DNA from: Alistipes montrealensis
Lineage (GTDB): Bacteria > Bacteroidota > Bacteroidia > Bacteroidales > Rikenellaceae
Direction of reading: 5' to 3'
DNA length: 64,000 bases
Assembly (NCBI RefSeq): GCF_018362775.1
Contig: NZ_JAGYXY010000004.1
Span: 1 to 64,000 of the forward strand
Shown: positions 632 through 47,587 of the stretch, in pieces
Position numbering within the stretch: the stretch's first letter is position 1
How the letters are laid out: each line of letters opens with the position of its first letter
Translations under genes and position numbers: made by a program
The notes under the pieces: generated by a model
Told to the model about the DNA's origin: nothing
What the model saw: the letters and a program-made list of their open reading frames with translations, nothing else
The model's database searches: none

Positions 632-655
632 TTACCTTTCAGAGGGAGAAGATCG

Positions 656-1459
656 ATGAAAAAAATAGATACGGACGAGTTAAAGATGTTGCAGACCGAT
701 GTGTTGGAAGCGATACACGGATTTTGCGAAAAACAGGGTATAAAATATACGATGGGTTGCGGAACACTGTTGGGCGCAGTCCGTCACAAAGGTTATATTC
801 CCTGGGACGACGATATTGATATCTATTTGTTGCGTGAGGATTATGAACGGCTGATGAAATCGTTCCCTTCGCTTTACGATGGAAAATACAAACTTGTTTC
901 TTTGGAGCGGGATGCTTCTTGGGAGCGTCCCTATGCAAAGGCTTACGACAACCGAACTGTGTTTCGGGAGAACGCTGCTTATAAGTATGTGATAGGTGTA
1001 GGGATAGATGTTTATCCCATTGACAATGTTCCCGACAACGAAAGCGAATGGGTGGCTTATAATCGGAAACGCTTGTTTTTTCAGCGGTTGTTCCAAATGA
1101 AATTCATCCGGCTGAATAAATCCCGGAGTCTTTGGAAGAATATGCTGTTGGTGATTGTGAAAGGGGTATTGCTACCTGTTTCCCCGAGCCGTTTCGCCCG
1201 TTTCCTTGACCGGTATGCCCGAAAATACAACAATGCGTCGACCCGGTTTGTCTTCGAGAATGTCCAAGGGGTATGTGTACGTCGCCGTTTTCGGAAAGAT
1301 GTCTTTCTCGATATCGAGGATATGTCCTTTGAAGACCGCTATTTCAACGGATTGAAGGATTACGATGAATATCTGCGTAATGCCTATGGAGACTATATGC
1401 AATTGCCTCCCGAGGAAAAGCGGGTTCCTCACCATGATTTTATAGCAGGCTGGAAGTAG
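656..1459 (+). CDS. LicD family phosphotransferase
   Basis: 267 residues with the LicD signature: GCGTLLGAVRHKG near residues 34-46, then the acidic WDDDID motif at 50-55, which is the metal-binding part of this nucleotidyltransferase-like fold. LicD proteins move phosphocholine, phosphoribitol or related groups from a CDP donor onto a sugar of a surface polymer. An SD-like AGGGAGAAG stands just before the ATG. It lies between the CDP-alcohol-forming enzyme and the flippase, so the two are probably a donor-maker and transferase pair that adds a phospho-substituent to the repeat unit before export. Acceptor and transferred group are unknown. Confidence 0.88.
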   Translation: MKKIDTDELKMLQTDVLEAIHGFCEKQGIKYTMGCGTLLGAVRHKGYIPWDDDIDIYLLREDYERLMKSFPSLYDGKYKLVSLERDASWERPYAKAYDNRTVFRENAAYKYVIGVGIDVYPIDNVPDNESEWVAYNRKRLFFQRLFQMKFIRLNKSRSLWKNMLLVIVKGVLLPVSPSRFARFLDRYARKYNNASTRFVFENVQGVCVRRRFRKDVFLDIEDMSFEDRYFNGLKDYDEYLRNAYGDYMQLPPEEKRVPHHDFIAGWK

Positions 1460-1464
1460 AGATT

Positions 1465-2862
1465 ATGATAAGGCCGTTTCTGAAGAATCTTTCGTTCGTA
1501 TTTGGGGCGCAATTCCTAATCCTGTTTATCAGCGTTGCACGGGCTCTGATTTTGCCGAAATTCTTTTCTGTGGAGGCTTTCGGTTATTGGGAAGTGTATT
1601 GGTTTTACACTTGTTATGTCGGTTTGTTTTGTTTGGGATATAATGACGGCATTTATCTGAAGTATGGCGAGTACGACATCGATCGGCTACCTATAAAACA
1701 GATACGTTCGGCGACAAGGCTTTTCTCCGGGATGCTTTTGCTCTTTGTGGCGGTCGCTATCGGCGGAATCAATTTGTCCGGATTTTCATCCGAAGTGCGT
1801 TTTGCACTGGTTTTCGCCGCATTGAATATCTTTGTATTGGGGGTGATGGGTGTATATATCTATATTTTTCAGATCACTAACCAGTTTAAAAAATACAGTT
1901 TTTTTTCAGTTGTAGATAAAGTTCTGGTGCTCTTTGCTATCGGATTGATGGTCCTGATTAACGAAAATAATTTCCGGATTATCGTCGTTGCCGATTTTGT
2001 CTCCAAATTGATTGTCCTTGCCGTGATTGTGTGGAAGACGAAGGAGTTGCTTTTTGGCCCCGTAACCGCATTTAGGGAGTCTTTGAAATTTATGGGACAG
2101 AATATGCAGGTAGGCATCAAACTGATGGTGGCTAACCTGATGTCCATGCTTCTTATAGGTGCGGGGAAATTTATCGTCCAGATTTTCGGCAATATCCGGG
2201 ATTTTGCCATCTATTCGTTCGGTATATCCATTACGGGCTTGGTGCTGACCGCCGTGACGGCTTTCAGTCTCGTGCTTTATCCTACGATAAAACGAATCCC
2301 GGCGGAACGTTATGCAGAGATATTCGATAAGGTGAACAGTTTTACACGCCTATTCGGCTTGAGTTCGATATTGTGTTATTTCCCGGCATATCTGTTTATT
2401 GCTTATTTCTATCCGAAGTATGCTTCCGTGTTGCCCTATCTGAACATTCTGTTCCTAATCGTATTCCTTCAGTGCAAGATCAGCCTGTTGGACAACACTT
2501 TCTATAAGGTGCTTCGCAAGGAGACAGGCATGCTCTGGGCCAATATATCGTGTGTCGCGCTTTTCGTGGTAATGGCACTGGTGGGTTTCAGTTTGAATCA
2601 GGATATGTGGGTGATTGCATTTTGTACTTTTCTGGCGATGCTTTACCGCTGTTACATGTCGGAATTCACCTTATGCCGGGCTGTTTCGATGCCGCCTGAC
2701 GGACGGATTGTCTTCGAACTCGTGTTTATGCTGCTGTTTCTGCTCAGTAGTTCCTACTGTTCGCTGACCTGGAGCGCAGCATTCACGGCCGGAATTTATT
2801 GTCTGTGGATCGTCGCGGACCGCCGTAAAAACAAATCTATTTTAGCCCTGTTGAAGCAATGA
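1465..2862 (+). CDS. Wzx-type O-unit flippase (MOP superfamily)
   Basis: 465 residues, very hydrophobic along the whole length with about 12 to 14 predicted membrane segments, the expected size for Wzx/RfbX flippases. The N-terminus (MIRPFLKNLSFVFGAQ) matches the family pattern of a short cytosolic stretch before helix 1, and FSVEAFGYWEVYW resembles the segment after it. It should flip undecaprenyl-PP-linked repeat units to the periplasmic face of the inner membrane. It starts 5 bases after licD and its stop overlaps the next gene's ATG (ATGA), consistent with one operon. Wzx proteins diverge strongly, so substrate cannot be inferred. Confidence 0.85.
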   Translation: MIRPFLKNLSFVFGAQFLILFISVARALILPKFFSVEAFGYWEVYWFYTCYVGLFCLGYNDGIYLKYGEYDIDRLPIKQIRSATRLFSGMLLLFVAVAIGGINLSGFSSEVRFALVFAALNIFVLGVMGVYIYIFQITNQFKKYSFFSVVDKVLVLFAIGLMVLINENNFRIIVVADFVSKLIVLAVIVWKTKELLFGPVTAFRESLKFMGQNMQVGIKLMVANLMSMLLIGAGKFIVQIFGNIRDFAIYSFGISITGLVLTAVTAFSLVLYPTIKRIPAERYAEIFDKVNSFTRLFGLSSILCYFPAYLFIAYFYPKYASVLPYLNILFLIVFLQCKISLLDNTFYKVLRKETGMLWANISCVALFVVMALVGFSLNQDMWVIAFCTFLAMLYRCYMSEFTLCRAVSMPPDGRIVFELVFMLLFLLSSSYCSLTWSAAFTAGIYCLWIVADRRKNKSILALLKQ

Positions 2863-4109
2863 ATATCGTCGTGCTCGTAGGTAGTTATTATCCGAACTAT
2901 TCTGCAGTTGGTATCTGCGCCAGGAATATCGTTGATATACTGAAATCAAAGCATAAAGTTACCGTTGTTGCCAATAAAAAGACAATGATGGATACTGATT
3001 TTCGGATAGATGGAGTGGATCTAAAATATATAAGTTCACGAATTATCGATTACCAGATACGCCTCGATGAAAAGATGAAACAAGACCTATCCTCATTTCG
3101 ATATATTTATAAATTAGGTAGGGTCTGTCTTAAATTGCTGAGATTTGTCAATATTTTGATTTCTCCTGTCAGTGTTAGGCGTAAATTCGTATCAGCTTAT
3201 TATAAAGCCCTTATTAGTATAGGAGAACGCGAATCGATCGATTTGATTTTACCTTTCGTATTTCCAGTAGAATCATTAGTTGCAGGATATGAATACCATA
3301 ATGCCTTTCGGCAGGCAAAAATTATTCCTGTGATATTTGACAATTTCGTTGAGAACCCCTCTTTGCACAGGGTCGGGATTAATCGGTTGTTGAAAAAGAA
3401 GAGGCATGTAAAACTGCTGGATACTATATTCGGAGTATGTGAAAAAATACTCGTAATGCATACTCAGAAATCATATTTTACGAAAAATCACGATTCTGTT
3501 TTAGATAAAACTCATTTTATCGAACATCCTCTTCTTATTCCGCCCCAATATGAAAATACGAAAAAACAGGGCGTATCTTTCTTATATACGGGATCTTTTC
3601 TGAAAGGCTATGTAGAGGCGGGCGGATTGATATCCGCTTTAACGGAAATTCTGGAAAAGTATGATTATAAAGTAGACTTTTTTGTTATGGGAAATGCACT
3701 GTCGCCTATAACTGAATTTGTTGCTGCGTTTCCTTTACAAGTCTTCAATCATGGCTGTGTGGCGATGGAAACAGCGCTTTTTGAAATGAGCAAAGCGGAC
3801 TTCTTTTTATGTGTTGCAGAATTTTCTGGGATACAAATGTCTAGCAAGATATTCACTTATATGTCGTATGGGAAGCCGATTATCCTAATATATTACGCAG
3901 AAGAGGATATTAATGTTCGGATACTGAAAAAATATTCTCTGTTCTTTCCTTTGAAATCCGATAAAAAGGGGCGTATTGATAGGAAAGATATCGATTCTCT
4001 TATCAGGTTTGTTGAGCGAACTAAATCGAAGATCATTTCTTTCGAGGATGTAGCTATGACTTATAATGATGCGCTACCTTCTACTACTTGTGACCTAATC
4101 CTTTCATAA
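2859..4109 (+). CDS. Glycosyltransferase, GT-B fold (GT4-like)
   Basis: 416 residues. The N-terminus (MNIVVLVGSYYPNYSAVG) has the beta-strand then 'YPN' layout of GT4 enzymes that bind the acceptor. The C-terminal half has the donor-side features FLYTGSFLKGYVEAGG and SSKIFTYMSYGKPII, the place where GT4 proteins carry the E-x7-E donor site; the first glutamate is not obvious. The role would be addition of one sugar to the lipid-linked repeat unit on the cytosolic face. The gene is clearly AT-richer than those downstream, as is the next one, which is typical of strain-variable glycan genes. Donor and linkage are unknown. Confidence 0.8.
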   Translation: MNIVVLVGSYYPNYSAVGICARNIVDILKSKHKVTVVANKKTMMDTDFRIDGVDLKYISSRIIDYQIRLDEKMKQDLSSFRYIYKLGRVCLKLLRFVNILISPVSVRRKFVSAYYKALISIGERESIDLILPFVFPVESLVAGYEYHNAFRQAKIIPVIFDNFVENPSLHRVGINRLLKKKRHVKLLDTIFGVCEKILVMHTQKSYFTKNHDSVLDKTHFIEHPLLIPPQYENTKKQGVSFLYTGSFLKGYVEAGGLISALTEILEKYDYKVDFFVMGNALSPITEFVAAFPLQVFNHGCVAMETALFEMSKADFFLCVAEFSGIQMSSKIFTYMSYGKPIILIYYAEEDINVRILKKYSLFFPLKSDKKGRIDRKDIDSLIRFVERTKSKIISFEDVAMTYNDALPSTTCDLILS

Positions 4110-4209
4110 TGACTTGTGTTGATAGTAATTCTTTGTGTCTTATTGGTATATGATTCGGAAAATATGAAATCTTCCATGGAAAATTCAATCGTCAAGAACT
4201 AAAAATTGC

Positions 4210-5586
4210 ATGAAGGGCATTTTGTATACAGTAATTCTGTTGTCATATTTATTCGCTCCGGCTGAATATTCATGGAGTTTCTGCGTCTGTATGTTGGCAA
4301 TATTTTGTTTCATTTTTTTGAAAATCATAGTCAAAACCCGAAACTATAAGATATTCAGCTACGCCACTCTGTTCTTTGCAACGCTTTTTTTTGTGAATTT
4401 TGCCTATCCGGTATTCATATATCCCACGGACCCTACGTTTATCCTGCAATTCAGATACTCGTTTTCTCCGGAATATATTAACCGAGGTACAGTCTTATGT
4501 GTAGTGGCGTTCGCTGCATTTGCGGAGGGCTTTTCCCGGGACCGTAAAATAATTCATGGGAGGGAATATTCGATTAACATCAATGCGTATAATTTTTTCC
4601 TTGCACTGGCCTGTTTGGTTTTCCTTTATAATGTTTATATAATTTATCCGCAGATTGGAGCCGTGATCTACGGAGATGCCAGAGTCCCGTTTCAAGGAGG
4701 TTCTTTGCTTAGTATGTTGTCATGTGTCCTTCTGATGATTAATTCATATCGGAATAGGAGAAAGATATATGATCGTCCGTTTCTGTTTTTAAAGATTAAC
4801 TGGCTTATTCTCTCGATTATCGGATTATATGTTGCTATAACCTTAATGTTAGGAAGCCGCGAATATGCGTTGACATTGTTTTTATTGGTCGCTTTCGTTT
4901 TCTCGAATTTCGTTCGACCGATAAGGTTGAAGACTTTGTTGCCATTGCTGTTGATCGGAGTGATTTCCATGTACTATGTTTCCCAAATCAGAAATGCAAG
5001 CGGCGAAACGTACGCTTCCTCCGGATTGCTTAAAAACAGGGATTACCAGGATAGCAGGGTAAGCGGATATTGGAATATGTTTACCGATCTGATGGTGAAC
5101 AATAGAAACCTCTATGTCGGCATGCAGTATGTCGATGATGACAATCGGGGTTATACCTATGGGTATCATTATATACCTACGCTGTTCGCCCCAGTCCCAT
5201 TTTTACCCGATTTCGTTTCAAGGTCCTTTTTGGGGGAGCCTGCTGTGAAATTTACATCCCAGGAAATGCTGACTGATTATACCAGAACCGATCTCGGACA
5301 TAGTGATTTGGATTACGAACTCGGAAGTAATTGCGTTGTTGACGTATATATGGCTTTTGGTGTGATCGGTGTGATCGTTTTGTTCGGGCTTTTAGGATAC
5401 GGGATTCGTTTTTTGGAGCAGAACAGCCCGGGGAATATAAAGTATGCCTGCCTTTATATTATCCTTTTTACATCCGTAGTTTTCTTTTGCCGGGGATCGT
5501 TTTTCGGATTCTACCGGAATCTAATTTGGGCTTACCTGATATGTTCGGTAATCTTGAGGGTGAACCGACGCTCCGTTTCCATCTGA
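4210..5586 (+). CDS. Wzy-like oligosaccharide repeat-unit polymerase
   Basis: 458 residues with about 10 to 12 hydrophobic segments and one longer hydrophilic loop around residues 260-380 (IRNASGETYASSG to the GHSDLDYELGSN region), the layout of O-antigen polymerases with a large periplasmic loop. It would join flipped repeat units in the periplasm in a Wzx/Wzy system, and it sits two genes after the Wzx-like gene. Sequence is AT-rich and shows no short conserved motif, normal for Wzy. A 100-base gap (4110-4209) separates it from the glycosyltransferase before it; I see no gene or clear hairpin there. An O-acetylase or other polytopic protein is less likely given size and loop position. Confidence 0.75.
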   Translation: MKGILYTVILLSYLFAPAEYSWSFCVCMLAIFCFIFLKIIVKTRNYKIFSYATLFFATLFFVNFAYPVFIYPTDPTFILQFRYSFSPEYINRGTVLCVVAFAAFAEGFSRDRKIIHGREYSININAYNFFLALACLVFLYNVYIIYPQIGAVIYGDARVPFQGGSLLSMLSCVLLMINSYRNRRKIYDRPFLFLKINWLILSIIGLYVAITLMLGSREYALTLFLLVAFVFSNFVRPIRLKTLLPLLLIGVISMYYVSQIRNASGETYASSGLLKNRDYQDSRVSGYWNMFTDLMVNNRNLYVGMQYVDDDNRGYTYGYHYIPTLFAPVPFLPDFVSRSFLGEPAVKFTSQEMLTDYTRTDLGHSDLDYELGSNCVVDVYMAFGVIGVIVLFGLLGYGIRFLEQNSPGNIKYACLYIILFTSVVFFCRGSFFGFYRNLIWAYLICSVILRVNRRSVSI

Positions 5587-5590
5587 TACG

Positions 5591-6694
5591 ATGAAAAATA
5601 TCGTTGTTTCGGCTGCCGCTCTGCGCTCGAGCGGCGCATTGACTATATACCGGCAATTTATCGAGCGGTTGCGGAAGCATATCGGTGATAATCGTTATTT
5701 CGTGTTTGTCGACCCGGAAATGCCTCAGCCGGCTATCGACGGGGTGGAGTATATTCATATCGACATAAGGGGTAATGTCAGAAGAGTACGTTTCGATTGG
5801 TTCGGATTTGCAGCCGCATTGAAACGTCGGTCTATCCGCCCCGACTTGATCGTATCCTTGCAGAATACCGGCGTCCGATATCCGGAGCGTATTCCACAGG
5901 TCATTTACTATCATCAGTCGATTCCGTTCTATCCGCACCGCTGGAATCCGTTGAAAAAAGCGGAGCGGACACTCTTTTTTTACAGTCGGGTCTATCCGTT
6001 TTTTGTGAAGGCCTCACTTACGCCCCGGACGCATGTCGTCGTACAGATACCTTTTATTAAACGAAACTTTATCAGCTATTTCGGTGTGTCGGAAGATCGG
6101 GTCCACGTCTTGTTTCCCGAGGTAGAAGCGGTTGATGTGGCACGGATAGACGGCTATCCTTTCGAGCCGGGTCTGCAACATTTCCTTTACCCGGCGACGG
6201 GAGTATCCTACAAGGAACACAGGACACTTGTCGGAGCGCTGAAAGTACTTCGCGAAACCGACCTCGGGGAGTTTCGAAAAATCCGGCTGCACTTTACACT
6301 CGCGCCGGGCGAGGCGCCTGAACTGGAGGCCGAAATCCAGCGGGCCGGCTTGGAACAGCATGTCGTGTTTGAAGGCTGCGTTCCGCATGCCCAATTGCTT
6401 GCTATGTATAAATCGGCATGTGGCCTGCTCTTTCCGAGCACTATTGAAACCCTGGGACTTCCTCTTTTAGAAGCGGCGGCTTTCGGTCTGCCCGTTTTGG
6501 CTTCGGACCTCGATTATGCCCATGAGGTGATGGGGGAGTATACCGGGACGGAATTCATTCCTGTGCGTGATTGCCAGCAATGGGCGCAATCTATTTTGAA
6601 CGTCTGCCGCGAAAGGCAAAAGTACCCGCCTCTGAAATCTGCCGACAGTAATTCGTGGCTGGAATTTTTCGCACTAATCGGTCGCCTGGCCTGA
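5591..6694 (+). CDS. Glycosyltransferase family 4 protein
   Basis: 367 residues, GT-B fold. The donor-binding half shows the steps expected of GT4: YPATGVSYKEHRTLVGAL, then VVFEGCVPHAQLLAMY, then PSTIETLGLPLLEAAAFG, where the two glutamates spaced by seven residues (ETLGLPLLE) form the E-x7-E nucleotide-sugar site. It starts 4 bases after the polymerase stop, so it belongs to the same transcript. It should add a sugar to the growing lipid-linked unit; donor not known. It returns toward the higher GC of the rest of the window. Confidence 0.88.
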   Translation: MKNIVVSAAALRSSGALTIYRQFIERLRKHIGDNRYFVFVDPEMPQPAIDGVEYIHIDIRGNVRRVRFDWFGFAAALKRRSIRPDLIVSLQNTGVRYPERIPQVIYYHQSIPFYPHRWNPLKKAERTLFFYSRVYPFFVKASLTPRTHVVVQIPFIKRNFISYFGVSEDRVHVLFPEVEAVDVARIDGYPFEPGLQHFLYPATGVSYKEHRTLVGALKVLRETDLGEFRKIRLHFTLAPGEAPELEAEIQRAGLEQHVVFEGCVPHAQLLAMYKSACGLLFPSTIETLGLPLLEAAAFGLPVLASDLDYAHEVMGEYTGTEFIPVRDCQQWAQSILNVCRERQKYPPLKSADSNSWLEFFALIGRLA

Positions 6695-6758
6695 ACGTGC
6701 GGAACATTCCGGGGCGGCAAGCATTGTTGTACCAACATAATTCAAATCATAAAATACT

Positions 6759-7832
6759 ATGTCCGTATTCAAAGACAAAGTCCTGTTGATTACAGGAGGA
6801 ACGGGTTCGTTCGGGAATGCCGTTCTTCGGCGGTTTCTGGATTCAGATGTGCGGGAAATCCGCATTTTTTCCCGGGACGAAAAGAAACAGGACGACATGC
6901 GCCATGCCCTGCAAAATCCGAAGGTGAAATTTTACATAGGAAATGTCCGTAACCGGCAGTCGGTGGATGTCGCCATGCGTGGGGTTGATTATGTATTTAG
7001 TGCAGCGGCACTGAAACAGGTCCCGAGTTGTGAATTCTTTCCCATGGAGGCTGTACATACGAATATTGCCGGAACGGAAAACGTGTTGCTTTCAGCTATT
7101 GAACACGGTGTGAAAAATGTTGTTGTCCTTTCTACGGACAAAGCGGCGTATCCGATCAATGCAATGGGTATGAGTAAGGCCCTTATGGAAAAAGTGGCCG
7201 TAGCCAAAGGCCGCGAACTTGGAGAAGATGCCGGAACCACGATCTGTTGTACGCGCTATGGCAATGTTATGGCCAGCCGCGGTTCGGTGATTCCTCTCTG
7301 GGTGGAGCAGATGGAGGCCGGCCGGCCTATTACCATTACCGACCCGGATATGACACGCTTTATGATGACGCTTGACGATGCCGTGGACCTTGTGATTTAT
7401 GCCTTTACGCATGGTCGCAATGGCGATCTTTTCGTACAAAAGGCTCCGGCAGCCACGCTTGCGACACTTGCTCAGGCGCTTAAAGAGACTTATGCAAAGA
7501 TTTCCCCGAAATACCTGCAGACTGAGGTCCGGGTTATCGGTACGCGTCACGGCGAGAAGCTTTATGAGACGCTGGTAACCCGAGAAGAGATGGTGCGCGC
7601 CGAAGATATGGGTGGATATTATCGTATTCCCTGCGATACGCGCGATCTGAATTACGACAAGTTTTTCACGAAAGGCAACGAGGAGGTATCGAAGATCGAG
7701 GATTACCACAGCCACAACACGCGCCGTCTGGACGTGGCTGGGATGAAGGAACTCCTGCTCAAACTCCGCTTTATCCGTGAGGATCTGGGACTGGAGCCGA
7801 AAGCTAAATCCCGCGAAATAAGAAGTGAATGA
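6759..7832 (+). CDS. UDP-GlcNAc 4,6-dehydratase/5-epimerase (CapE/WbjB/FnlA type)
   Basis: 357 residues, extended SDR fold. The NAD site GGTGSFGN lies at residues 13-20. The active-site region reads STDKAAYPINAMGMSK: TDK is kept, and the usual YxxxK is MxxxK, which as I recall is typical of the CapE branch. The family converts UDP-GlcNAc to UDP-2-acetamido-2,6-dideoxy-4-keto sugars with inversion at C5 (and C3), the first step to UDP-L-FucNAc, L-RhaNAc or L-QuiNAc. The next two genes are the other two pathway members. A 64-base gap precedes the start; no clear promoter box was found in it. Confidence 0.9.
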   Translation: MSVFKDKVLLITGGTGSFGNAVLRRFLDSDVREIRIFSRDEKKQDDMRHALQNPKVKFYIGNVRNRQSVDVAMRGVDYVFSAAALKQVPSCEFFPMEAVHTNIAGTENVLLSAIEHGVKNVVVLSTDKAAYPINAMGMSKALMEKVAVAKGRELGEDAGTTICCTRYGNVMASRGSVIPLWVEQMEAGRPITITDPDMTRFMMTLDDAVDLVIYAFTHGRNGDLFVQKAPAATLATLAQALKETYAKISPKYLQTEVRVIGTRHGEKLYETLVTREEMVRAEDMGGYYRIPCDTRDLNYDKFFTKGNEEVSKIEDYHSHNTRRLDVAGMKELLLKLRFIREDLGLEPKAKSREIRSE

Positions 7833-7883
7833 TACCCCCGATAGGCGGACCTGTTTAATAAACTATCTGAGAAAAATATTGCC

Positions 7884-9017
7884 ATGTTGAAAGTAATGAC
7901 CATCGTCGGAACGCGACCCGAAATTATTAAATTGAGTCGTGTGATGGCTGAACTGGATAAGTATACCGATCACGTTATAGTTCATACGGGACAGAATTTC
8001 GATTATGAACTGAATGAGATATTCTTCAACGAATTACATATTCGCAGACCGGATTATTTCCTGGATGCGGCCGGCAGGAATGCTGCGGAGACGATTGCCA
8101 ACGTTATTCTGAAGTCAGACGAACTGATGGAGCGGATTCGTCCCGATGCGCTTCTGCTTTATGGGGATACCAACAGTTGTATTTCGGTGATTTCAGCCAA
8201 ACGAAAGAAAATTCCGATCTTCCACATGGAGGCCGGCAACCGTTGCTTCGATCAGCGTGTCCCCGAAGAGATCAACCGTAAGATCGTCGATCATCTAAGT
8301 GATATCAACATGCCGTTGTCCGAGCATGCCCGTCGTTATCTGCTTGCGGAAGGGCTTCGTCCCGAGACTGTGATTAAGACGGGATCACCCATGACCGAAG
8401 TGCTGAAATATCACCTTCCTGAAGTGGAGAAGAACGATGTCCTGGAGAAAGAAGGACTGAAGAAAGGTGAATACTTTATCGTGAGTACACACCGTGAGGA
8501 GAATGTGGATTCGGAGAAGAATTTTACGGACCTTTTGGCGTCTTTAAATGCAATTACAGCCAAATACGGAAAGAAAGTTATTGTTTCGACCCATCCGCGT
8601 ACCCGCAAGAAATTGGAAGAGATCGGTTTTACAAACACTAATCCGATGATCGAATTTATGAAGCCATTCGGATTTATGGAGTATATAAAACTCCAGATGA
8701 ACGCTTTCTGCGTGATCTCGGATAGCGGAACGATTACCGAAGAGTCTTCTATTCTGCATTTTCCCGCAATCACGATCCGTCAAGCCCATGAGCGTCCGGA
8801 AGGAATGGATGAGGGTACGCTGATTATGACAGGCCTGAACAGCAAGCGTATTCTGGACTCCATTGATGTTGTAACCTCTCAACATGCGGAGGGGACAGAT
8901 GCTATCCATTCCATTCCTGATTATGCGGCGGACAATGTGTCGAAAAAAGTCGTGCGCATCATCCTTTCCTATACGGATTATGTGAATCGTACGGTTTGGC
9001 ATAACGAGAGCGAATGA
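7884..9017 (+). CDS. Non-hydrolysing UDP-N-acetylhexosamine 2-epimerase (WecB/WbjD/WbvD family)
   Basis: 377 residues, the normal length for the WecB family. Signatures are GTRPEIIKLSRVM at residues 9-21, YGDTNSCIS, HMEAGNRCFDQRVPEEINR (catalytic acid/His region) and STHREEN. In this setting, between the CapE-like dehydratase and an RmlD-like reductase, it should invert C2 of a UDP-6-deoxy-L-hexosamine rather than make UDP-ManNAc. It starts 51 bases after the dehydratase stop and ends 3 bases before the reductase. A simple WecB role cannot be excluded from sequence, but a separate UDP-ManNAc dehydrogenase is absent from the window. Confidence 0.9.
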   Translation: MLKVMTIVGTRPEIIKLSRVMAELDKYTDHVIVHTGQNFDYELNEIFFNELHIRRPDYFLDAAGRNAAETIANVILKSDELMERIRPDALLLYGDTNSCISVISAKRKKIPIFHMEAGNRCFDQRVPEEINRKIVDHLSDINMPLSEHARRYLLAEGLRPETVIKTGSPMTEVLKYHLPEVEKNDVLEKEGLKKGEYFIVSTHREENVDSEKNFTDLLASLNAITAKYGKKVIVSTHPRTRKKLEEIGFTNTNPMIEFMKPFGFMEYIKLQMNAFCVISDSGTITEESSILHFPAITIRQAHERPEGMDEGTLIMTGLNSKRILDSIDVVTSQHAEGTDAIHSIPDYAADNVSKKVVRIILSYTDYVNRTVWHNESE

Positions 9018-9020
9018 CCT

Positions 9021-9884
9021 ATGAATAAAAAGAAAATTTTGCTCTTCGGTGCAACAGGCATGGCCGGGCATATGGCTTATTATTATTTGCAAGGGACGGG
9101 ACATTACGAGTTGACAAATGTTGTTTTCCGGACTCCGTTGACGGACGCCAGCATCGTAGTCGATGTGACGGATCGGAGGGCTGTTGCGGATGTGGTTCAT
9201 ACTGTTCGGCCCGATATTATCCTGAATTGTGTGGGCGTATTGATTCGGGGGTCCAAGGAACATCCTGACAATGCGATTTATATCAATGCCTATTTCCCGC
9301 ATCAGTTGAAAGCTCTGGCAGATGAAGTTGGGGCAAAACTCGTCCATATCAGTACGGACTGCGTGTTCTCAGGTCGAAAAGGGAATTATTCGGAGACGGA
9401 TTTCCGCGATGCTGACGATACTTATGGGCGCAGCAAAGCGATGGGTGAGGTTATTAACGACAAGGACTTGACGCTCCGTACGTCGATCATCGGGCCGGAA
9501 CTGAAGGTAAATGGTGAGGGGCTTTTCCATTGGTTTATGCATCAAACAGGCTCTGTAAATGGGTTTAAAACGGCAATCTGGGGCGGTGTTACCACATTGG
9601 AATTGGCCAAGGCGATTGATTATGCCATCCAGACCGAGTGCACGGGTTTGATTCAGTTGAGTAACGGGGAAGGTATCAGTAAATACGACCTGCTTTGTCT
9701 GTTTCGGGAAATTTGGCAGCGAGATATCGAGATCCTTCCGGTGGATGCCAATGGCGTGGATAAAAGTATTGCCCGTTCTACCCGGTTGGACTATACAATT
9801 CCGGGGTATCGTCGGATGCTGGAGGAGCAGAAGGAGTGGATGGACAGTCATGGTTACTTGTATGATTCGAATTACCGGCTATGA
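9021..9884 (+). CDS. RmlD-like SDR reductase (WbvR type), third enzyme of the L-HexNAc pathway
   Basis: 287 residues, similar in size to dTDP-4-dehydrorhamnose reductase RmlD. It has the NADP site LLFGATGMAGHMA near residues 6-18, STDCVFSG around residue 113, and the catalytic YGRSKAMGE (YxxxK). It should reduce the C4 keto group of the product of the dehydratase/epimerase. FucNAc-forming CapF/WbjC enzymes are about 370 residues with a C-terminal cupin, which is absent here; the size and RmlD-like sequence fit WbvR-type enzymes of the L-RhaNAc/L-QuiNAc route. The stop overlaps the ATG of the next glycosyltransferase. Confidence 0.85.
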   Translation: MNKKKILLFGATGMAGHMAYYYLQGTGHYELTNVVFRTPLTDASIVVDVTDRRAVADVVHTVRPDIILNCVGVLIRGSKEHPDNAIYINAYFPHQLKALADEVGAKLVHISTDCVFSGRKGNYSETDFRDADDTYGRSKAMGEVINDKDLTLRTSIIGPELKVNGEGLFHWFMHQTGSVNGFKTAIWGGVTTLELAKAIDYAIQTECTGLIQLSNGEGISKYDLLCLFREIWQRDIEILPVDANGVDKSIARSTRLDYTIPGYRRMLEEQKEWMDSHGYLYDSNYRL

Positions 9885-11083
9885 GAATCCTGTTGGTAAG
9901 TCAATATTTCTATCCGGAAGAGTTTAAAGTAAATGATCTCGCAGCCAGTTTGGTCGAACGCGGACATTCCGTTACAGTGCTTACCGGGAAACCGAACTAT
10001 CCGAAGGGAGCGTATTTCGAAGGGTACGGTTTCTGGGGAATTAAGAAAGAGAATTACAAAGGAGCCGAGATTATTAGGATTCCGGTGGTCCGCCGGGGAC
10101 AGGGCACGGCTATCCGCCTGGCTGCCAATTATCTGTCATTTGCTTTTTTCGGAAGCCTTTATGCATTGTTTCATAAAATAGAATATGATTATGTGCTGTG
10201 CTTTCAGTTGTCTCCGATAACGCAGGCATATCCGGCCCTTATGCTGAAGAAAAAGTATAAATGCAAGGTCGGCCTTTGGGTGCAGGATCTATGGCCGGAA
10301 AGTGTTTCTGCCGCTGGAGACGTAAACAATCGGTTCGTGCACAGATACCTCGAAAGCATGGTAAGGCGGATTTATGCGAAGTGCGACACGCTCTTTGTCC
10401 AGTCGGAAGCATTTCATCGTTCCATCTGCGCAAAAGGTCCTTTTGAGGATAAGATAGTCTATACACCGAATTGGGCGGAGGATTTGTTTTGTGCTCGGGG
10501 AAATATCGACAGCTGTAAGTACCAACATTTAATGCCCGACGGTTTTCGGGTGATGTTTGCCGGGAATGTGGGCGCTGCACAGGACTTCGATTCGATCCTC
10601 CGGGCCGCTTCTTTGACAAAGGATATTCCTGAGATCAAATGGGTAATTGTCGGAGATGGCCGTAAGCGCGCTGAGGCTGAACGGATCGTGCAAAATGAGG
10701 GGCTGGATCGTACGGTCTTATTCTTGGGCCGGTATCCGGTGACGGAAATGCCTGCCTTCTTCATCCATGCGGATGCTATGTTGGTTACCCTTCGTAATGA
10801 ATATATCTTTTCACTTACGATTCCTTCTAAATTGCAGGCGTACATGGCTTCCGGTAAGCCGGTCCTTTCGATGATCGACGGTGTTGGCAACGATGTTATT
10901 CATGCGGCCGGATGCGGCCTTACGGCAGATGCCGGCGATGCGGAAACCTTGTCGAGAAACGTACGCCGTCTTTATGAAATGGATAAACAGGAGTTGGCCG
11001 ATATGGGAAAACGGGGATTCACTTATTATAAAAAGAATTTTTCAAAGGATGAAATTCTGGATAAGATCGTATCCTATATGTAA
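9881..11083 (+). CDS. Glycosyltransferase family 4, WbuB-like
   Basis: 400 residues. The N-terminus MRILLVSQYFYPEEFKVND and the KPNYPKGAYFEGYG stretch are characteristic of the WbuB-like GT4 group, often found next to UDP-L-FucNAc/L-QuiNAc synthesis genes and a WecA-like transferase. LWVQDLWPES and the C-terminal IPSKLQAYMASGKPVL are further family marks. It overlaps the reductase stop by ATGA. The most likely role is transfer of the L-hexosamine made by the three upstream enzymes onto the first, lipid-linked sugar. Donor identity is inferred from context. Confidence 0.88.
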   Translation: MRILLVSQYFYPEEFKVNDLAASLVERGHSVTVLTGKPNYPKGAYFEGYGFWGIKKENYKGAEIIRIPVVRRGQGTAIRLAANYLSFAFFGSLYALFHKIEYDYVLCFQLSPITQAYPALMLKKKYKCKVGLWVQDLWPESVSAAGDVNNRFVHRYLESMVRRIYAKCDTLFVQSEAFHRSICAKGPFEDKIVYTPNWAEDLFCARGNIDSCKYQHLMPDGFRVMFAGNVGAAQDFDSILRAASLTKDIPEIKWVIVGDGRKRAEAERIVQNEGLDRTVLFLGRYPVTEMPAFFIHADAMLVTLRNEYIFSLTIPSKLQAYMASGKPVLSMIDGVGNDVIHAAGCGLTADAGDAETLSRNVRRLYEMDKQELADMGKRGFTYYKKNFSKDEILDKIVSYM

Positions 11084-11173
11084 TATGCCTCTTGGTACGA
11101 TTCGAACTCAGCCGGAATGCGCTCCGCGTGCGGAAGAGGGACTGGCGAAAACCCTGAAAAGTTTTCATGCGAA

Positions 11174-32310: not shown

Positions 32311-32318
32311 CAAAGATA
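32311..32318 (-). promoter_or_regulatory. TAnnTTTG -7 box for the marR-efflux operon
   Basis: Minus strand TATCTTTG, exact match, 22 bases before the chosen marR ATG; autoregulation by MarR would act here. Confidence 0.6.
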
Positions 32319-32573
32319 ATATACTTTCCGGAAAATAGTTCGATATTAAACTATTTTAATGCATTGGTCGATTCCCATATATGCGATGTTTCTGTTGAGA
32401 TTTATTTATAAAGTACCTTTTATCATCCAGACATTGTTTTCTAAATTAACTTGTATCGCAGACTATATTAATATTTATTTTTTATAACTTAGACAAAAAT
32501 TTGAAGTCTGCAAAAAAGCAATCCATATAAACATATATTCAATAACAGAAGTCAAATCTTGTTTTTTAGAATT
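32319..32573. other. AT-rich intergenic stretch before the helicase gene
   Basis: About 255 bases, much richer in A/T than the flanking efflux operon. It holds no gene I can support. It includes TTTATTTATAAAGTACC and long A/T runs and probably contains the helicase promoter, but no exact TAnnTTTG box was found. Confidence 0.5.
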
Positions 32574-35297
32574 ATGGTTAAAGAGCAAATCGAAGATATC
32601 GCCAATAGAATCAAAATCCATCGCGAGAATGAGATAAATAGCCAATCCTCTAATAATGCTATCGGAAGGCTTCTTGTCGATTATGATAAACAGGAAAAGG
32701 TAATTTGGCTGACCCTCAGGCCGAAAGTGGAAATGAGTTACCGGAGTGATATACTCGGTAATATCGATCCGAATTCGGCGAAAAAAACACATCATACATA
32801 TGATGGTGACGGCACCAATATTCAGCGGGATTCCAAACTCGGGGCTTTATTCATTCAGCATTATGAAGGAATTCACAAACATACTACGCCCAGAGGCGAG
32901 ATTGAGATCGAGATATTTAATAGGGCGGTTTACACTCCATGCATGACTTCTTTCAGCGAGGATGAATGTGCTATAGACATTTCGATCAATCTTTCCGGCG
33001 ATAGCAAAACTCATTATTTTGAGAATCTTTCCGAAATACTGGCCCTGCAACTGGAGATAGAACAGGAGAAAAAAAAATTGCTCAAGGCAACTGAAGAACA
33101 GACGCATGAATTGATAACCCGTATCAATCGCAAAGAAGAGGAGAAGAAGCGGTTGTTATCCAAGACACAGAGTTTTATAAGAAAATCTGCTTCATTGAGA
33201 TTTCAGCCCATACTTGATCCCATCCAGGAATCCATAAAGCGTTCAAGATTGTTCGATGGTTGTCTTGTGATTAACGGGGGGCCGGGTACGGGGAAAACCA
33301 CTTCCCTTATACAACGGATAAAGTACCTTATTTCGGACACAATAGAAGAGGTAAAAGAGGATTTGACTCCCAAGCAGAAAGCTATTCTGTACGATGAGAA
33401 ATCGAGTTGGATTTTCTATTCACCCAATGAACTGCTGGCGTTGTTTCTCCAGAATAGTATGCGCATGGAGGGGCTTACAGCCGATCCGAAAAGGGTAAAA
33501 GTGTGGTTCGCTCACAGGAACGAACTCGTGAAAAGTTATAAATTGGTCGATACGCAGACCATGCGGCCTTTCATGATGTACCGGAATACAGCTGATAAAT
33601 GCCTTATCACCAATAGGCCTGAAAATATTGTTTCTATAACCAAAAATCTGGGAAAGTACTATTTTAATTATCAGAAGGAGAAAATAGCAAATCTACTCGA
33701 TATTGATGTAACTGCTATGACCTGGAGAAACACAGGGATGTCGATTCAAAAATTTCTTTCAGGAAAAAAAGATTTATCTACCTGGGATGCATTGATACGT
33801 CTTTTCATTAATCTGAGCGAGACCTACAAAAGCGAATCGGATGCGATATCGGAAGGTTACAATAAGTCGATAGAAACAGTTGCCGCAAGAGTGCAGTTAC
33901 TCGTTTCTCAGGATGACGACAGGCTTTCTAAGATAAAACGACTTTTAACTTCGTGGAAGACCTCCGGGCAGGAAAACGAAGAAGAAACCGACGAAATAGA
34001 GATCGAACAGGAGGATTTCGACGAAAAAGAAGATACCTCGATTTTGGATCAAGAAAAAGAGCTTTTTATCAAACTGAAATCCCTGTGCCGAAAGCAAGCA
34101 CTCAGCCGGTTCGATAAAAATACAAAGATCTCGGGCAAAGAAAAAGAACTTCTGGAATTGATCCCGGAAGCCGTGGATCAGCCCGAGTATAAAAATATCG
34201 GGAATACGGCTTTTTTTAAAAAGTATTTTGAAAGCGTGACTCGAGGTATCGTTTCGAACGTTTTGCGAGAAATTCCGTTGATTTACAAACGGTTTAGAAA
34301 AGAACAGTTGATCTCTAAGTCGGTGGATTACGATCTTTTCGTGCTTGAGAGACTGGTAAAAACTGATAAAAACACAAGGATTCATTCCGATGAACAGGAC
34401 TTATTACTTTACTTTATAAATACAATTTGCCGGATATTGGCAAAAAACTTTAATAATCAATACAATCGCATTTCCCATCCATACCTTACTGCATATAAGG
34501 CCAACTGCAAACCCGTTATCGCTGTCGATGAGGCCACCGACTTCTCATTGATCGATTTGTTGGCAATTTCCAGTTTCGAACACCCGGACATCTCATCTGT
34601 CACTTTTTGCGGGGATGTTATGCAGGCTATGACCGAATGCGGATTAAGATCATGGGACGATCTGTCAGCGGTTCTTCCCAATACCCATATAAGTAATCTC
34701 AAAGTGTCATATCGTCAGAGTGCTACTTTGCTTTCTCTTGCCGGATCGATCTATAAACAAGTTACGGGAAACAAGGCTAGTTACCATTCTTTCATTAAAA
34801 AGCATCGCGAGGAGCCAAAACCGTTAGTGATGGTCTCGGAAGACGAAGAGGAAAAAATGAACTGGATAGCCGATCGAATAATCGAGATTTATAAAGCTTA
34901 TGATGATAAAATCCCATCCATTGCCATATTCCTTCCTCAGGAGGAGCAGATTCAACACTTCGCGTCACTGTTGGGCAATATAGATACTCTCGCGGATGTC
35001 GGGATCAACGTCAAAGCCTGCAGAGACGGCGAAGTTTTGGGGGATGAAAATTTTGTAAGGGTTTTTTCTATAGATAAAATAAAGGGACTCGAATTCGAAG
35101 CTGTTTTCTTCTATGATTTGGATAGGTTGCAGGAACTGCATTTTCCTGAAGAATTACTGTTGAAATATCTGTATGTCGGATTATCGAGGGCTACTTTTTA
35201 TTTGGGGTTGACCCTCAGTAAAGAATTCAGCGATAATTTGTCCTTTTTAAAGGAGAACTTCGATACCACATCGCGTAAATGGCTTATAGGCAGTTAA
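32574..35297 (+). CDS. Large SF1 (UvrD/HelD-like) helicase-type ATPase
   Basis: 907 residues from the ATG at 32574. Helicase motifs in order: Walker A NGGPGTGKTT (Lys 241), motif II VDEATDF (Asp652-Glu653; Thr where UvrD has Gln), motif III FCGDVMQAM, motif IV SYRQSATLL, motif V DKIKGLEFEAV and motif VI VGLSRAT (Arg872). Before the ATPase lie about 150 unrecognised residues and a lysine/glutamate-rich coiled coil (about 160-205), as in HelD proteins. An acidic stretch (ENEEETDEIEIEQED) lies near residue 470. No nuclease or Cys cluster is visible. It is a lone, AT-rich gene. RNA polymerase recycling, repair or phage defence are all possible. Confidence 0.8.
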   Translation: MVKEQIEDIANRIKIHRENEINSQSSNNAIGRLLVDYDKQEKVIWLTLRPKVEMSYRSDILGNIDPNSAKKTHHTYDGDGTNIQRDSKLGALFIQHYEGIHKHTTPRGEIEIEIFNRAVYTPCMTSFSEDECAIDISINLSGDSKTHYFENLSEILALQLEIEQEKKKLLKATEEQTHELITRINRKEEEKKRLLSKTQSFIRKSASLRFQPILDPIQESIKRSRLFDGCLVINGGPGTGKTTSLIQRIKYLISDTIEEVKEDLTPKQKAILYDEKSSWIFYSPNELLALFLQNSMRMEGLTADPKRVKVWFAHRNELVKSYKLVDTQTMRPFMMYRNTADKCLITNRPENIVSITKNLGKYYFNYQKEKIANLLDIDVTAMTWRNTGMSIQKFLSGKKDLSTWDALIRLFINLSETYKSESDAISEGYNKSIETVAARVQLLVSQDDDRLSKIKRLLTSWKTSGQENEEETDEIEIEQEDFDEKEDTSILDQEKELFIKLKSLCRKQALSRFDKNTKISGKEKELLELIPEAVDQPEYKNIGNTAFFKKYFESVTRGIVSNVLREIPLIYKRFRKEQLISKSVDYDLFVLERLVKTDKNTRIHSDEQDLLLYFINTICRILAKNFNNQYNRISHPYLTAYKANCKPVIAVDEATDFSLIDLLAISSFEHPDISSVTFCGDVMQAMTECGLRSWDDLSAVLPNTHISNLKVSYRQSATLLSLAGSIYKQVTGNKASYHSFIKKHREEPKPLVMVSEDEEEKMNWIADRIIEIYKAYDDKIPSIAIFLPQEEQIQHFASLLGNIDTLADVGINVKACRDGEVLGDENFVRVFSIDKIKGLEFEAVFFYDLDRLQELHFPEELLLKYLYVGLSRATFYLGLTLSKEFSDNLSFLKENFDTTSRKWLIGS

Positions 35298-35330
35298 AAT
35301 AGATAGTCCGACTTTTTAATGTATTAAAAT

Positions 35331-35366
35331 AATTAGGCAGTTACACACTTTGTAACTGCCTTTTTT
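35331..35366 (+). terminator. Terminator of the SF1 helicase gene
   Basis: A 10-bp stem (AGGCAGTTAC with GTAACTGCCT) and 7-base loop followed by TTTTTT, 34 bases after the stop. Confidence 0.85.
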
Positions 35367-35801
35367 GCAAACACAAGCGAAATGATGATTAGACGCATAA
35401 GGGAATAGGTTACTGTCATTCTCACGAGTTTTGTATTTGAAAATACTGGTGTAGACATATATTGAAAACGGGAGAGATACTCCGCCTGTTAACTCAATGT
35501 CAAGATTATGTAATTCTATAAAATAACTCTTGATGAGTTTTTTGCTTCACTAAATTATCCACCGAAAAAAAGTAAATAACTGCCGCAATAAGCAAACCGG
35601 GCATTAGAGCTATCAATGGCTCTATGTCCGGTTTATTTTGACTTTTTCGCAAATTAGTTTGCAACTCGTATCCATGTACCACGATTAAGCACTTTAGTGA
35701 CCTGCTTTCGTGTGCTTGCCTTTGCTATGGTCTGAAACGGAATAATCCCGCATATCGTTGATATACAAGATTATTTGCGCTGATTTGCGGCTGTCTGCCA
35801 A
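35367..35801. other. Gene-poor AT-rich region between the helicase and tRNA-His
   Basis: About 435 bases without a supportable gene. It holds one imperfect 17-bp inverted repeat (35594-35634, arms AAACCGGGCATTAGAGC and GCTCTATGTCCGGTTT) followed by a T-rich stretch, which looks like a terminator, although no gene precedes it. Composition matches the helicase rather than the core genes. It could be a leftover of a mobile element or hold an unrecognised small RNA. Confidence 0.45.
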
Positions 35802-35826
35802 CAAAAAAGGTCTTCTTACGAAGACC
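35802..35826 (-). terminator. Terminator of tRNA-His
   Basis: On the minus strand GGTCTTCGTAAGAAGACC folds into a hairpin directly followed by TTTTTTG, a few bases after the tRNA 3' end. Confidence 0.85.
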
Positions 35827-35832
35827 ATTTTG

Positions 35833-35907
35833 GGTGGAAGATGGGGCTCGAACCCACGACCTTCGGAACCACAATCCGACGCTCTAACCGACTGAGCTAC
35901 ATCCACC
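35833..35907 (-). tRNA. tRNA-His (anticodon GTG)
   Basis: The minus strand folds as a cloverleaf: acceptor GTGGATG with CTTCCAC (one U-U mismatch), D arm GCTCAGTCGGTTAGAGC, anticodon loop with GTG in GGATTGTGGTTCC, and T arm GTGGGTTCGAGCCCCAT. An extra encoded G at -1 opposite C73 is the tRNA-His hallmark. No CCA is encoded. A consensus promoter lies just upstream and a terminator just downstream. Confidence 0.95.
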
Positions 35908-47053: not shown

Positions 47054-47110
47054 ATTTAAGTTTTTGGGGATTTTCTGCTTTTGACGGGAGATCCCGGAAA
47101 GTTATTGATT

Positions 47111-47587
47111 ATGGCACAAGAGATTATTTACCTGACAGCGGAGGGCTACAAGAAAATCAAGGACGAACTCGACCACATGCGTTCCGTCGAACGTCCGGCG
47201 ATTTCGGCGGCGATCGCCGAGGCGCGTGACAAGGGCGACCTTTCGGAGAACGCAGAGTATGACGCTGCCCGCGAGGCGCAGGGCCTGCTGGAAATGCGTA
47301 TCGCCAAGCTGGAGGATACGATGGCCAATGCGCGCGTGATCGACGAGTCGAAGATCGACAAGAGCAAGGTGCAGATCCTGAGCAAGGTGACGCTCCTGAA
47401 CCACAACAACCAGAAGCAGATGACCTACACGATCGTCGCCGAGCACGAGGCGAACCTGCGCGAGGGCAAGCTGGCGATCGGTACGCCTATCGCAAAGGCG
47501 CTGCTGGGCCGCAAGAAAGGCGACCGTGTGGACGTGGAGGTTCCGGCCGGTACGATCCATTTCGAGATTCTCGACATCAGCATCTGA
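47111..47587 (+). CDS. greA: Transcription elongation factor GreA
   Basis: 158 residues from the ATG at 47111. An N-terminal coiled coil (AEGYKKIKDELDHMRS ... GDLSENAEYDAAREAQ) carries the acidic tip DLSENAEYD near residue 40, and the C-terminal FKBP-like domain has IAKALLGRKKGDRVDVEVP. GreA restarts backtracked RNA polymerase by transcript cleavage in the active site. Own promoter, long leader, strong terminator. Confidence 0.96.
   Translation: MAQEIIYLTAEGYKKIKDELDHMRSVERPAISAAIAEARDKGDLSENAEYDAAREAQGLLEMRIAKLEDTMANARVIDESKIDKSKVQILSKVTLLNHNNQKQMTYTIVAEHEANLREGKLAIGTPIAKALLGRKKGDRVDVEVPAGTIHFEILDISI

What the first reader, a model, noticed from the sequence alone, without database searches (positions are those of the whole stretch)
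32574..35297. Lone, AT-rich SF1 helicase with a HelD-like coiled coil and a VDEAT motif
All SF1 motifs are present, motif II reads VDEATD instead of the usual DEQ/DEAQ pattern, a coiled coil precedes the ATPase, and about 150 N-terminal residues match nothing I know. The gene has foreign composition and no housekeeping partner. A stand-alone defence or RNA polymerase-displacing factor is plausible.
Basis: partly seen in the sequence, partly recalled or inferred. Interest (0 to 1): 0.55.

Follow-up and report, generated by a model that had tools for sequence, protein, structure and literature searches.

The report
HelD-like motor riding with DNA-modification defences
The lone foreign gene encodes an ATP-driven motor whose core resembles HelD and whose front end resembles Gre transcription factors; its relatives often sit inside bacterial immune systems that mark their own DNA, so it may link transcription to phage defence, although this has not been tested here.

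Summary
The ORF at 32574-35297 is real: 907 aa, all SF1 motifs, GC3 46% against 74-83% for clear host genes, alone in an AT-rich insert beside tRNA-His. It is absent from 60 of 60 relatives searched.

It belongs to a family annotated only as "ATP-binding domain-containing protein". VDEATD is that family's signature (DEATD in 21 of 22 members), not an oddity. The ATPase core is closest to HelD. The N-terminal part that "matched nothing" is a GreA/GreB-type domain: structurally in a proteobacterial relative (Gfh1 Z 8.8), by weaker profile evidence in the window branch. HelD's DWR motif is absent (0 of 22), so I do not file it as HelD.

Relatives occur in BREX operons (between BrxC and PglX), type III and type I R-M, Ssp, Dpd-like, MADS and MmeI-like loci. 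An 86% identical pair serves BREX and type III R-M, and an E. coli type III operon has lost most of the gene. Best reading: a mobile, optional, RNA-polymerase-directed motor attached to modification-based immunity, here stand-alone. Polymerase binding and phage protection are inferred, not shown.

The parts
32314..35831 (.). AT-rich insert carrying the single gene, between a marR-like gene and the 3' end of tRNA-His
   Evidence: GC 0.25-0.41 inside against 0.53-0.62 in the 1-kb blocks on either side; tRNA-His/groES conserved in four close relatives but the sequence held on the insert's side shares no gene with the window; no direct repeat of the tRNA end found
32574..35297 (+). 907-aa HelD/UvrD-like SF1 motor (VDEATD family)
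32646..33023 (+). N-terminal GreA/GreB C-terminal-like domain (residues ~25-150; the Gre-like motif at residues 77-116)
   Evidence: profile alignment to GreA above all 200 shuffles though with low hhalign probability; collinear profile match to the proteobacterial N-terminal domain, E 2.4e-4, whose model matches Gfh1/GreA at Z 8.8-7.8
33012..33185 (+). helix pair / coiled coil, residues 147-204
   Evidence: AF2 secondary structure, low to middling confidence
33276..33302 (+). Walker A (motif I) GGPGTGKTT, residues 235-243
33960..34034 (+). acidic loop, residues 463-487, inside the long helical insertion between motifs Ia and II
   Evidence: 14 of 25 residues D/E; the most acidic 25-residue stretch lies 181-196 residues before motif II in 20 of the 21 members with DEATD
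34524..34541 (+). motif II VDEATD, residues 651-656
   Evidence: DEATD in 21 of 22 members
34611..34625 (+). motif III GDVMQ, residues 680-684
   Evidence: G, D, Q invariant in 9 sequences
35079..35099 (+). motif V IKGLEFE, residues 836-842
35172..35192 (+). motif VI YVGLSRA, residues 867-873
35335..35366 (+). intrinsic-terminator-like hairpin plus T run
   Evidence: 11-pair stem
35832..35906 (-). tRNA-His (GTG) bordering the insert

Best explanation
The gene encodes a member of an unnamed family of HelD-like SF1 motors with a Gre-type N-terminal domain. Family members are optional add-ons of bacterial defences, mostly ones that mark self DNA. Proposed mechanism: the Gre-like domain docks at RNA polymerase (secondary-channel rim, as Gre factors and HelD do). 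The ATPase core, which appears to lack the UvrD 2B insertion, and the helical insertion with its acidic loop then pry nucleic acid from the polymerase or push it off DNA. In a modification system this would strip or stall transcription on unmarked invading DNA, or clear polymerase out of the way of the restriction/exclusion complex. In this genome the gene arrived horizontally as a single gene and would act alone or with the host's chromosomal modification systems. Shown here: family, motifs, gene contexts, patchy distribution; fold of the N-terminal domain in a relative. Inferred: the same fold in the window protein, polymerase binding, displacement, defence.
For: Core: profile best to B. subtilis HelD, E 1.2e-15, in one stretch (650-883 against 541-757), PcrA and most UvrD rows in two; Foldseek top four are HelD chains, best E 1.6e-11. 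N-terminus: the 12 highest VIA-align rows are Gfh1/GreA/GreB (10) and HelD (2), first Z 8.8, 66 residues, 2.2 A, first unrelated row 5.3; Foldseek's first nine rows are HelD, GreA/GreB or the RNA-polymerase-interacting 3bmb; Pfam GreA_GreB in 2 of 10 members, best E 0.0011; hhalign to GreA 32.2 and 22.9 against shuffle maxima 23.5 and 20.0, 0 of 200 each. Context: BrxA-BrxB-BrxC-[gene]-PglX-...-PglZ; SNF2-DUF4391-[gene]-Mod-Res (Res); MADS mad7/mad8; SspB/SspC, DpdB; type I R-M. Of 9 complete plasmid copies, 6 have modification-type genes and a 7th Tiamat within 8 kb; six 50-kb control stretches of these plasmids hold one R-M cluster. A BREX and a type III copy are 86% identical and lie in one clade.
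Against: No experiment links any member to RNA polymerase or to phage. Both AF2 models are poor overall (mean pLDDT 59 and 50), though the best blocks of the Gre-like domain reach 82-83. Foldseek matches of the whole model have TM-scores of only about 0.2, VIA-align ties HelD with UvrD and other helicases, and no Foldseek match of the N-terminal model reaches E 0.001. hhalign's probabilities to GreA are low, 35% and 4%. For the window protein itself Pfam finds no GreA_GreB match, and the N-terminal profile found no PDB sequence at E 10. HelD's DWR motif is absent in 22 of 22. The window copy has no defence gene in the insert; L017, L029 and L041 also lack a recognised system nearby. The context control is small, and by product names alone 5 rather than 7 of 9 plasmid copies would count.
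Confidence: 0.5

Rival explanations
1. A DNA translocase of modification-based defence that never touches RNA polymerase. The Gre/FKBP-like domain is only a protein-protein interface with BrxC/PglX, Mod/Res or nucleases; the motor moves along or remodels invading DNA, as UvrD-like defence helicases are thought to (recalled).
For: Operons place it beside DNA-acting enzymes: HNH with a 4-base overlap, PLD nuclease 18 bases downstream, SF2 helicase 12 bases upstream, BrxC and PglX. UvrD and PcrA profiles also match and tie with HelD in VIA-align; weak GajB profile match.
Against: Closest core by profile and Foldseek is HelD, not UvrD. The best structural matches of a relative's N-terminus are RNA-polymerase-binding proteins.
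Confidence: 0.3
2. A HelD-analogue that recycles the host's own stalled RNA polymerase, carried by mobile DNA; its position beside defence genes reflects shared islands, not shared function.
For: HelD genes of Bacteroides were also acquired horizontally (PMC8655204, passages). Copies without a recognised system nearby exist: the window, L017, L029, L041. One control stretch (Raoultella) holds other possible defence genes not far from the operon, as islands do.
Against: Copies lie inside operons between core genes: BrxC|gene|PglX with gaps of 2 and 7 bases in L035, DUF4391|gene|Mod with a 4-base overlap and a 74-75-base gap. The gene is absent from 60 of 60 relatives, unlike a housekeeping factor.
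Confidence: 0.15
3. The window copy is a functionless remnant of a decayed island at tRNA-His.
For: No integrase or attachment repeat in the insert. A related copy in G188 has an in-frame stop, G526 carries a copy in two frames, and 17 of the 20 E. coli rows listed keep only 18% of the gene.
Against: Intact 907-codon ORF with all motifs, 59-60% identical to an intact copy in another class of the phylum, and its own terminator-like hairpin.
Confidence: 0.05

Closest known systems
HelD (RNA polymerase recycling motor, classes I-III)
   Same: SF1 core closest by profile and by Foldseek; motifs II-VI in one stretch of similar length; an N-terminal domain that aligns with the relative's Gre-like model (6wvk residues 97-189, Z 6.9, 76 residues, 5.4 A); long insertion in domain 1A
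   Different: No DWR motif (0 of 22); mostly about 900 aa against 660-772 aa in the passages of PMC8655204 that I saw; VDEATD motif II; the window branch has its helix pair after, not before, the globular domain; found in defence operons and on plasmids
GreA/GreB/Gfh1 (Pfam PF01272 C-terminal domain)
   Same: N-terminal domain fold; in a proteobacterial member a predicted helical hairpin (5-35, 41-75; low confidence) precedes it as in Gre factors
   Different: Fused to an SF1 motor; identity to Gfh1/GreA/GreB only 15-27% in the structural alignments
GajB (Gabija helicase)
   Same: UvrD-like defence helicase; partial profile match, 38 bits
   Different: No second gene in the insert; match confined to short stretches; different N-terminal half
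BREX helicases BrxHI/BrxHII
   Same: Helicase encoded in a BREX operon
   Different: Those belong to another helicase group (recalled as SF2); this gene sits between BrxC and PglX of a type-1-like operon. The 2026 BREX survey PMC12839542 holds the word SF1 only in its references and UvrD or HelD not at all (outline, section 35 part 1 and passages seen)

Membership tests
HelD | SF1 ATPase core more similar to HelD than to UvrD/PcrA | tested here: met
   profile E 1.2e-15 (B. subtilis HelD) and 8.9e-14 (M. smegmatis) against 2.3e-11 PcrA; Foldseek top four rows HelD; VIA-align does not separate them
HelD | absolutely conserved DWR motif in the N-terminal domain (PMC8655204, passages) | tested here: not met
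   0 of 22 members have DWR in the first 300 residues
HelD | N-terminal antiparallel coiled coil (secondary channel arm) ahead of the globular domain | tested here: inconclusive
   window protein has a helix pair after the domain; a proteobacterial relative has a predicted hairpin before it, at low confidence
HelD | domain 1A split by a clamp-arm insertion | tested here: inconclusive
   about 300 mostly helical residues between motif Ia and motif II with an acidic loop; its 3D shape is not reliable in the model
HelD | binds core RNA polymerase | not testable with these tools
   needs purified proteins
GreA/GreB C-terminal domain (PF01272) | FKBP-like beta fold with Gre sequence profile, in proteobacterial relatives | tested here: met
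   Gfh1/GreA Z 8.8-7.8 for the model of L035, Pfam hit in 2 of 10 members, hhalign E 4e-4 with probability 35%
GreA/GreB C-terminal domain (PF01272) | same domain in the window protein itself | tested here: inconclusive
   no Pfam hit; hhalign E 0.0095, probability 4%, 0 of 200 shuffles as high; collinear match to the proteobacterial domain E 2.4e-4 over 118 columns
Gabija (GajB) | UvrD-like helicase paired with GajA | tested here: not met
   only weak partial profile hits; no second gene in the insert
BREX / type III R-M accessory gene | encoded inside the operon between core genes | tested here: not met
   seen for relatives L035, L037 (BREX) and L011, L012, L048 (type III); not met for the window copy, which stands alone

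The most novel reading that the evidence does not exclude
Modification-based immunity has an unrecognised transcription-directed arm. A mobile Gre-HelD-type motor, exchangeable between BREX, R-M, Ssp, Dpd and MADS operons and also carried alone, engages RNA polymerase on incoming DNA and evicts it, so that phage genes are silenced or the restriction complex gets a clear track.
Probability: 0.3. Interest if true: 0.85.

Novelty: new variant of a known kind. Interest (0 to 1): 0.6.

Why it matters
If the reading holds, one optional motor recurs in many kinds of defence that mark self DNA, and its fold points to RNA polymerase rather than to DNA alone. That would tie phage exclusion by systems such as BREX to transcription, and would give a single gene to delete for the test. 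It would also turn proteins now named only 'ATP-binding domain-containing protein' into a defined family.

Tried and rejected
Rejected: (1) 'VDEAT is unusual': it is the family signature. (2) GajB/Gabija: weak partial hits only. (3) Ordinary HelD of Bacteroides: those are listed as 671-693 aa, cluster with class I, and DWR is said to be conserved in all HelD (PMC8655204, passages); the mycobacterial HelD model found nothing at 1e-15 in 40 class genomes, own genome included, which says little about class I. (4) Mobile element with recognisable ends: no repeat of the tRNA-His end or integrase seen in the insert. (5) Phage origin: at E 1e-5 one of 50,697 phage records holds a weak partial match to the whole protein and none a match to the N-terminal part of L035. 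None of the listings showed a paper on this family; I read only parts of three papers, and the library is open-access only. Rows left out: L031/G526 (copy in two frames) from alignments and tree; L019, L039 and L084 (partial) and L020, L021 (weak, distant) from the 22-member set; L036, L038 and L080-L083, L085 repeat or nearly repeat L024, L033, L035, L037. L018 (no annotation; ORFs listed but not scanned), L032 and L034 (contig ends) were not assessed for context. L017 was counted as 'no system' although a gene annotated 'restriction endonuclease' lies about 5 kb away. Control stretches: one each from six of the nine plasmids, picked by me and judged by product names; the Raoultella stretch also holds two lone methylase genes, an Abi gene, a TrlF-type ATPase and a UvrD-helicase/ATP-binding pair that I did not count as R-M clusters, whereas contexts near the motor were partly judged with PADLOC models; by product names alone they would be 5 of 9 (L010, L011, L012, L013, L015).
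Full report
WHAT IS THERE. The ORF at 32574-35297 on the + strand is intact and encodes 907 residues. It lies in an AT-rich stretch of about 3.5 kb between a marR-like gene (ends 32313; name by eye) and tRNA-His (35832-35906, minus strand), followed by groES- and groEL-like genes (names by eye). Gene GC is 0.41 and GC3 0.456; clear host genes in the window have GC3 0.74-0.83, leaving aside long antisense or merged ORFs in the same list. A terminator-like hairpin starts 37 bases behind the stop codon. No second gene, integrase or attachment repeat was seen in the insert. In four close relatives tRNA-His and groES are conserved, while no other gene of window 27.8-36.6 kb matched the sequence held on the far side of the tRNA, which was about 0.2, 1.9, 4.2 and 11.5 kb.

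DISTRIBUTION. The gene is single-copy in its genome and absent from 60 of 60 other genomes of its genus (36) and order (24). At E 1e-20, 3 of 392 other genomes of the order and 1 of 394 others of the phylum have a relative; in a class sample 8 of 395 others matched at E 1e-3, of which one over the full length. These samples overlap. The closest, 59-60% identical, is in a genome of the same phylum but outside the class (G818), and a 50% identical one in a Paludibacter MAG. In the tree the window copy groups with these two (100/99 support). This is a patchy, horizontally moving gene.

FAMILY. Relatives of about 900 aa occur on 10 of 72,556 plasmid records at E 1e-20, 9 of them over 80% of the query, in 52 of 5426 E. 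coli genomes (8 with at least 80% of the query) and on viral-collection contigs. Where the records are annotated, most are called 'ATP-binding domain-containing protein'. In 22 members collected here DEATD is found in 21 (the other has DEAAD), motif VI reads YVG..RA in the 20 members that reach it, and the most acidic 25-residue stretch lies 181-196 residues before motif II in 20 of the 21 with DEATD. VDEAT is therefore the family's signature.

CORE. A profile of eight members finds B. subtilis HelD first among solved structures (E 1.2e-15), then M. smegmatis HelD (8.9e-14), PcrA (2.3e-11) and UvrD. The B. subtilis match runs in one stretch from motif II to motif VI (650-883 against 541-757); PcrA and most UvrD rows match in two stretches, as would be expected if the 2B insertion is missing here, though M. 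smegmatis HelD also matches in two. The AF2 model of the whole protein is weak (mean pLDDT 59, pTM 0.49); its four best Foldseek matches are HelD chains (E 1.6e-11 to 1.1e-6) but with TM-scores of about 0.2. VIA-align gives HelD 12.5, tied with UvrD and others, so the fold comparison alone does not separate them.

N-TERMINAL DOMAIN. Ten proteobacterial N-termini gave Pfam GreA_GreB in 2 of 10, best E 0.0011. Aligned to a profile of 30 GreA sequences from this phylum, the proteobacterial profile scores 32.2 (E 4e-4, probability 35%; 200 shuffles: mean 12.6, maximum 23.5; reversed 17.8) and the window-branch profile 22.9 (E 0.0095, probability 4%; shuffle maximum 20.0; reversed 15.5), both at the same Gre motif. 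The two branches' own profiles align over 118 columns (E 2.4e-4, probability 44%; 60 shuffles, maximum 19.8 against 33.1). A model of a proteobacterial N-terminus (L035 residues 1-219; mean pLDDT 50, best blocks of the beta domain 82-83) shows a helical hairpin followed by a Gre-like beta domain. Foldseek's first nine rows are HelD, GreA, GreB or the RNA-polymerase-interacting protein 3bmb, at E 0.0018-0.021. VIA-align's first 12 rows are ten Gfh1/GreA/GreB and two HelD chains: Gfh1 Z 8.8 (66 residues, 2.2 A), GreA 7.8, HelD residues 97-189 at 6.9; the first unrelated row is 5.3. Against this: a search of PDB sequences with the N-terminal profile found nothing at E 10, Pfam does not detect the domain in the window protein, and the evidence for the window branch is by profile only.

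CONTEXT. Two viral-collection contigs (L035, L037) hold BrxC-[gene]-PglX and, further on, PglZ; BrxA and BrxB were tested and matched in L035. Gaps are 2 and 7 bases in L035. Type III R-M operons of the form SNF2-DUF4391-[gene]-Mod-Res are annotated in Raoultella, Aeromonas (with two more genes before Res) and E. coli, where Mod is split by an insertion sequence; the viral contigs L024 and L038 carry the gene before a similar pair, with Res confirmed in L038. Other settings: type I R-M (L010 about 3 kb away, L033), N6-methylase with DISARM/type IIG similarity plus HNH (L013), SspB/SspC (L015), DpdB and DpdE/ZorD-like genes on the opposite strand (L014), Tiamat (L016), MADS mad7/mad8 (L023), MmeI-like methylase with DEAD and GIY-YIG proteins (L022), an SF2 helicase (L030 and, by similarity of its start, the broken L031). 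No recognised system: the window, L017, L029, L041. Of the nine complete plasmid copies, six have modification-type genes and a seventh Tiamat within 8 kb; L017 has none counted and L018 is unannotated. By product names alone the count is five. In one 50-kb control stretch from each of six of these plasmids (300 kb, by product names) I counted one R-M cluster, a second type III-like cluster of the Aeromonas plasmid, which lacks the gene; the Raoultella stretch also has lone methylases and other possible defence genes that I did not count. The control is small but points to enrichment. The BREX copy in L035 and the type III copy in L024 are 86% identical (where L024's contig appears as L081) and lie in one clade: the module has moved between systems. 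In E. coli, 17 of the 20 rows listed cover only 18% of the gene in two pieces that lie within about 480 bases, that is, internal deletions; in the one I opened, the neighbouring SNF2, DUF4391, Mod and Res genes are annotated without a pseudogene flag. The gene is thus optional.

MECHANISM. Fold and context together suggest an RNA-polymerase-directed motor attached to modification-based defence. Steps shown: motor core, Gre-type fold (in one branch by model and profile, in the other by profile only), conserved acidic loop, operon membership of relatives, exchange between systems, optionality. Steps inferred: docking at polymerase, displacement of polymerase or nucleic acid, effect on phage, and that the stand-alone window copy does the same. 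Two matches to N6-methylase elsewhere in the genome show that modification systems may be present; they were not examined further.

LITERATURE. PMC8655204 (passages only) supplies the HelD criteria: the DWR motif, the secondary-channel arm, the clamp arm. DWR is missing in 22 of 22, so the family is HelD-like, not HelD. PMC12839542 (outline, section 35 part 1 and passages) surveys BREX genes without the words UvrD or HelD, and with SF1 only in its references. PMC9009780 (passages) describes other accessory genes, between pglX and pglZ. The listings showed no paper on this family in the open-access library; most subscription papers are not covered.

VERDICT. Observation confirmed with corrections; interpretation partly supported. 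A new variant of a known kind (HelD-like motors), with a recurrent link to DNA-modification defences that I did not find described.

Noticed in passing
L049 (E. coli UPEC 26-1) 9980-10567; rows: 17 of 20 listed E. coli copies are internal deletions of this gene; in the one opened, the SNF2, DUF4391, Mod and Res genes of the type III operon remain annotated without a pseudogene flag.
   Followed up: partly
L089 6165-17751 (Aeromonas plasmid pE31A): A second WYL-SNF2-AAA-DUF4276-methyltransferase-DEAD cluster on the same plasmid lacks the motor gene: a natural with/without pair.
   Followed up: no
L033 8941-9957 and 12841-13404; L023 12593-13060; L029 5433-6104: In L033 the motor follows an uncharacterised 339-aa protein (weak PDC-S57 match) and overlaps a 188-aa protein of no known family; in L023 a 156-aa protein of no known family starts 3 bases behind it. 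L029 has a 223-aa protein that looks similar by eye to the 339-aa one, some 2.8 kb downstream.
   Followed up: partly
L030 11473-14148 and L031 5892-8561: A ~890-aa SF2 (ResIII/DEAD) helicase with an unassigned N-terminal part lies 12 bases upstream of the motor in two genomes; a possible two-helicase system.
   Followed up: partly
L002/L032 (G188): The 39% identical relative in G188 carries an in-frame TAA and lies near a contig end.
   Followed up: no
L022 10632-12021: The 50% identical Paludibacter copy is cut off after motif II, beside ORFs that look by eye like an insertion sequence.
   Followed up: no
window 1-11100: A second low-GC stretch (0.36-0.52) whose ORFs look by eye like surface-polysaccharide genes; no family search was run on them.
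   Followed up: no
window 47081-47587: The host's own greA gene lies in the window; it was used as the reference row of the GreA profile.
   Followed up: yes
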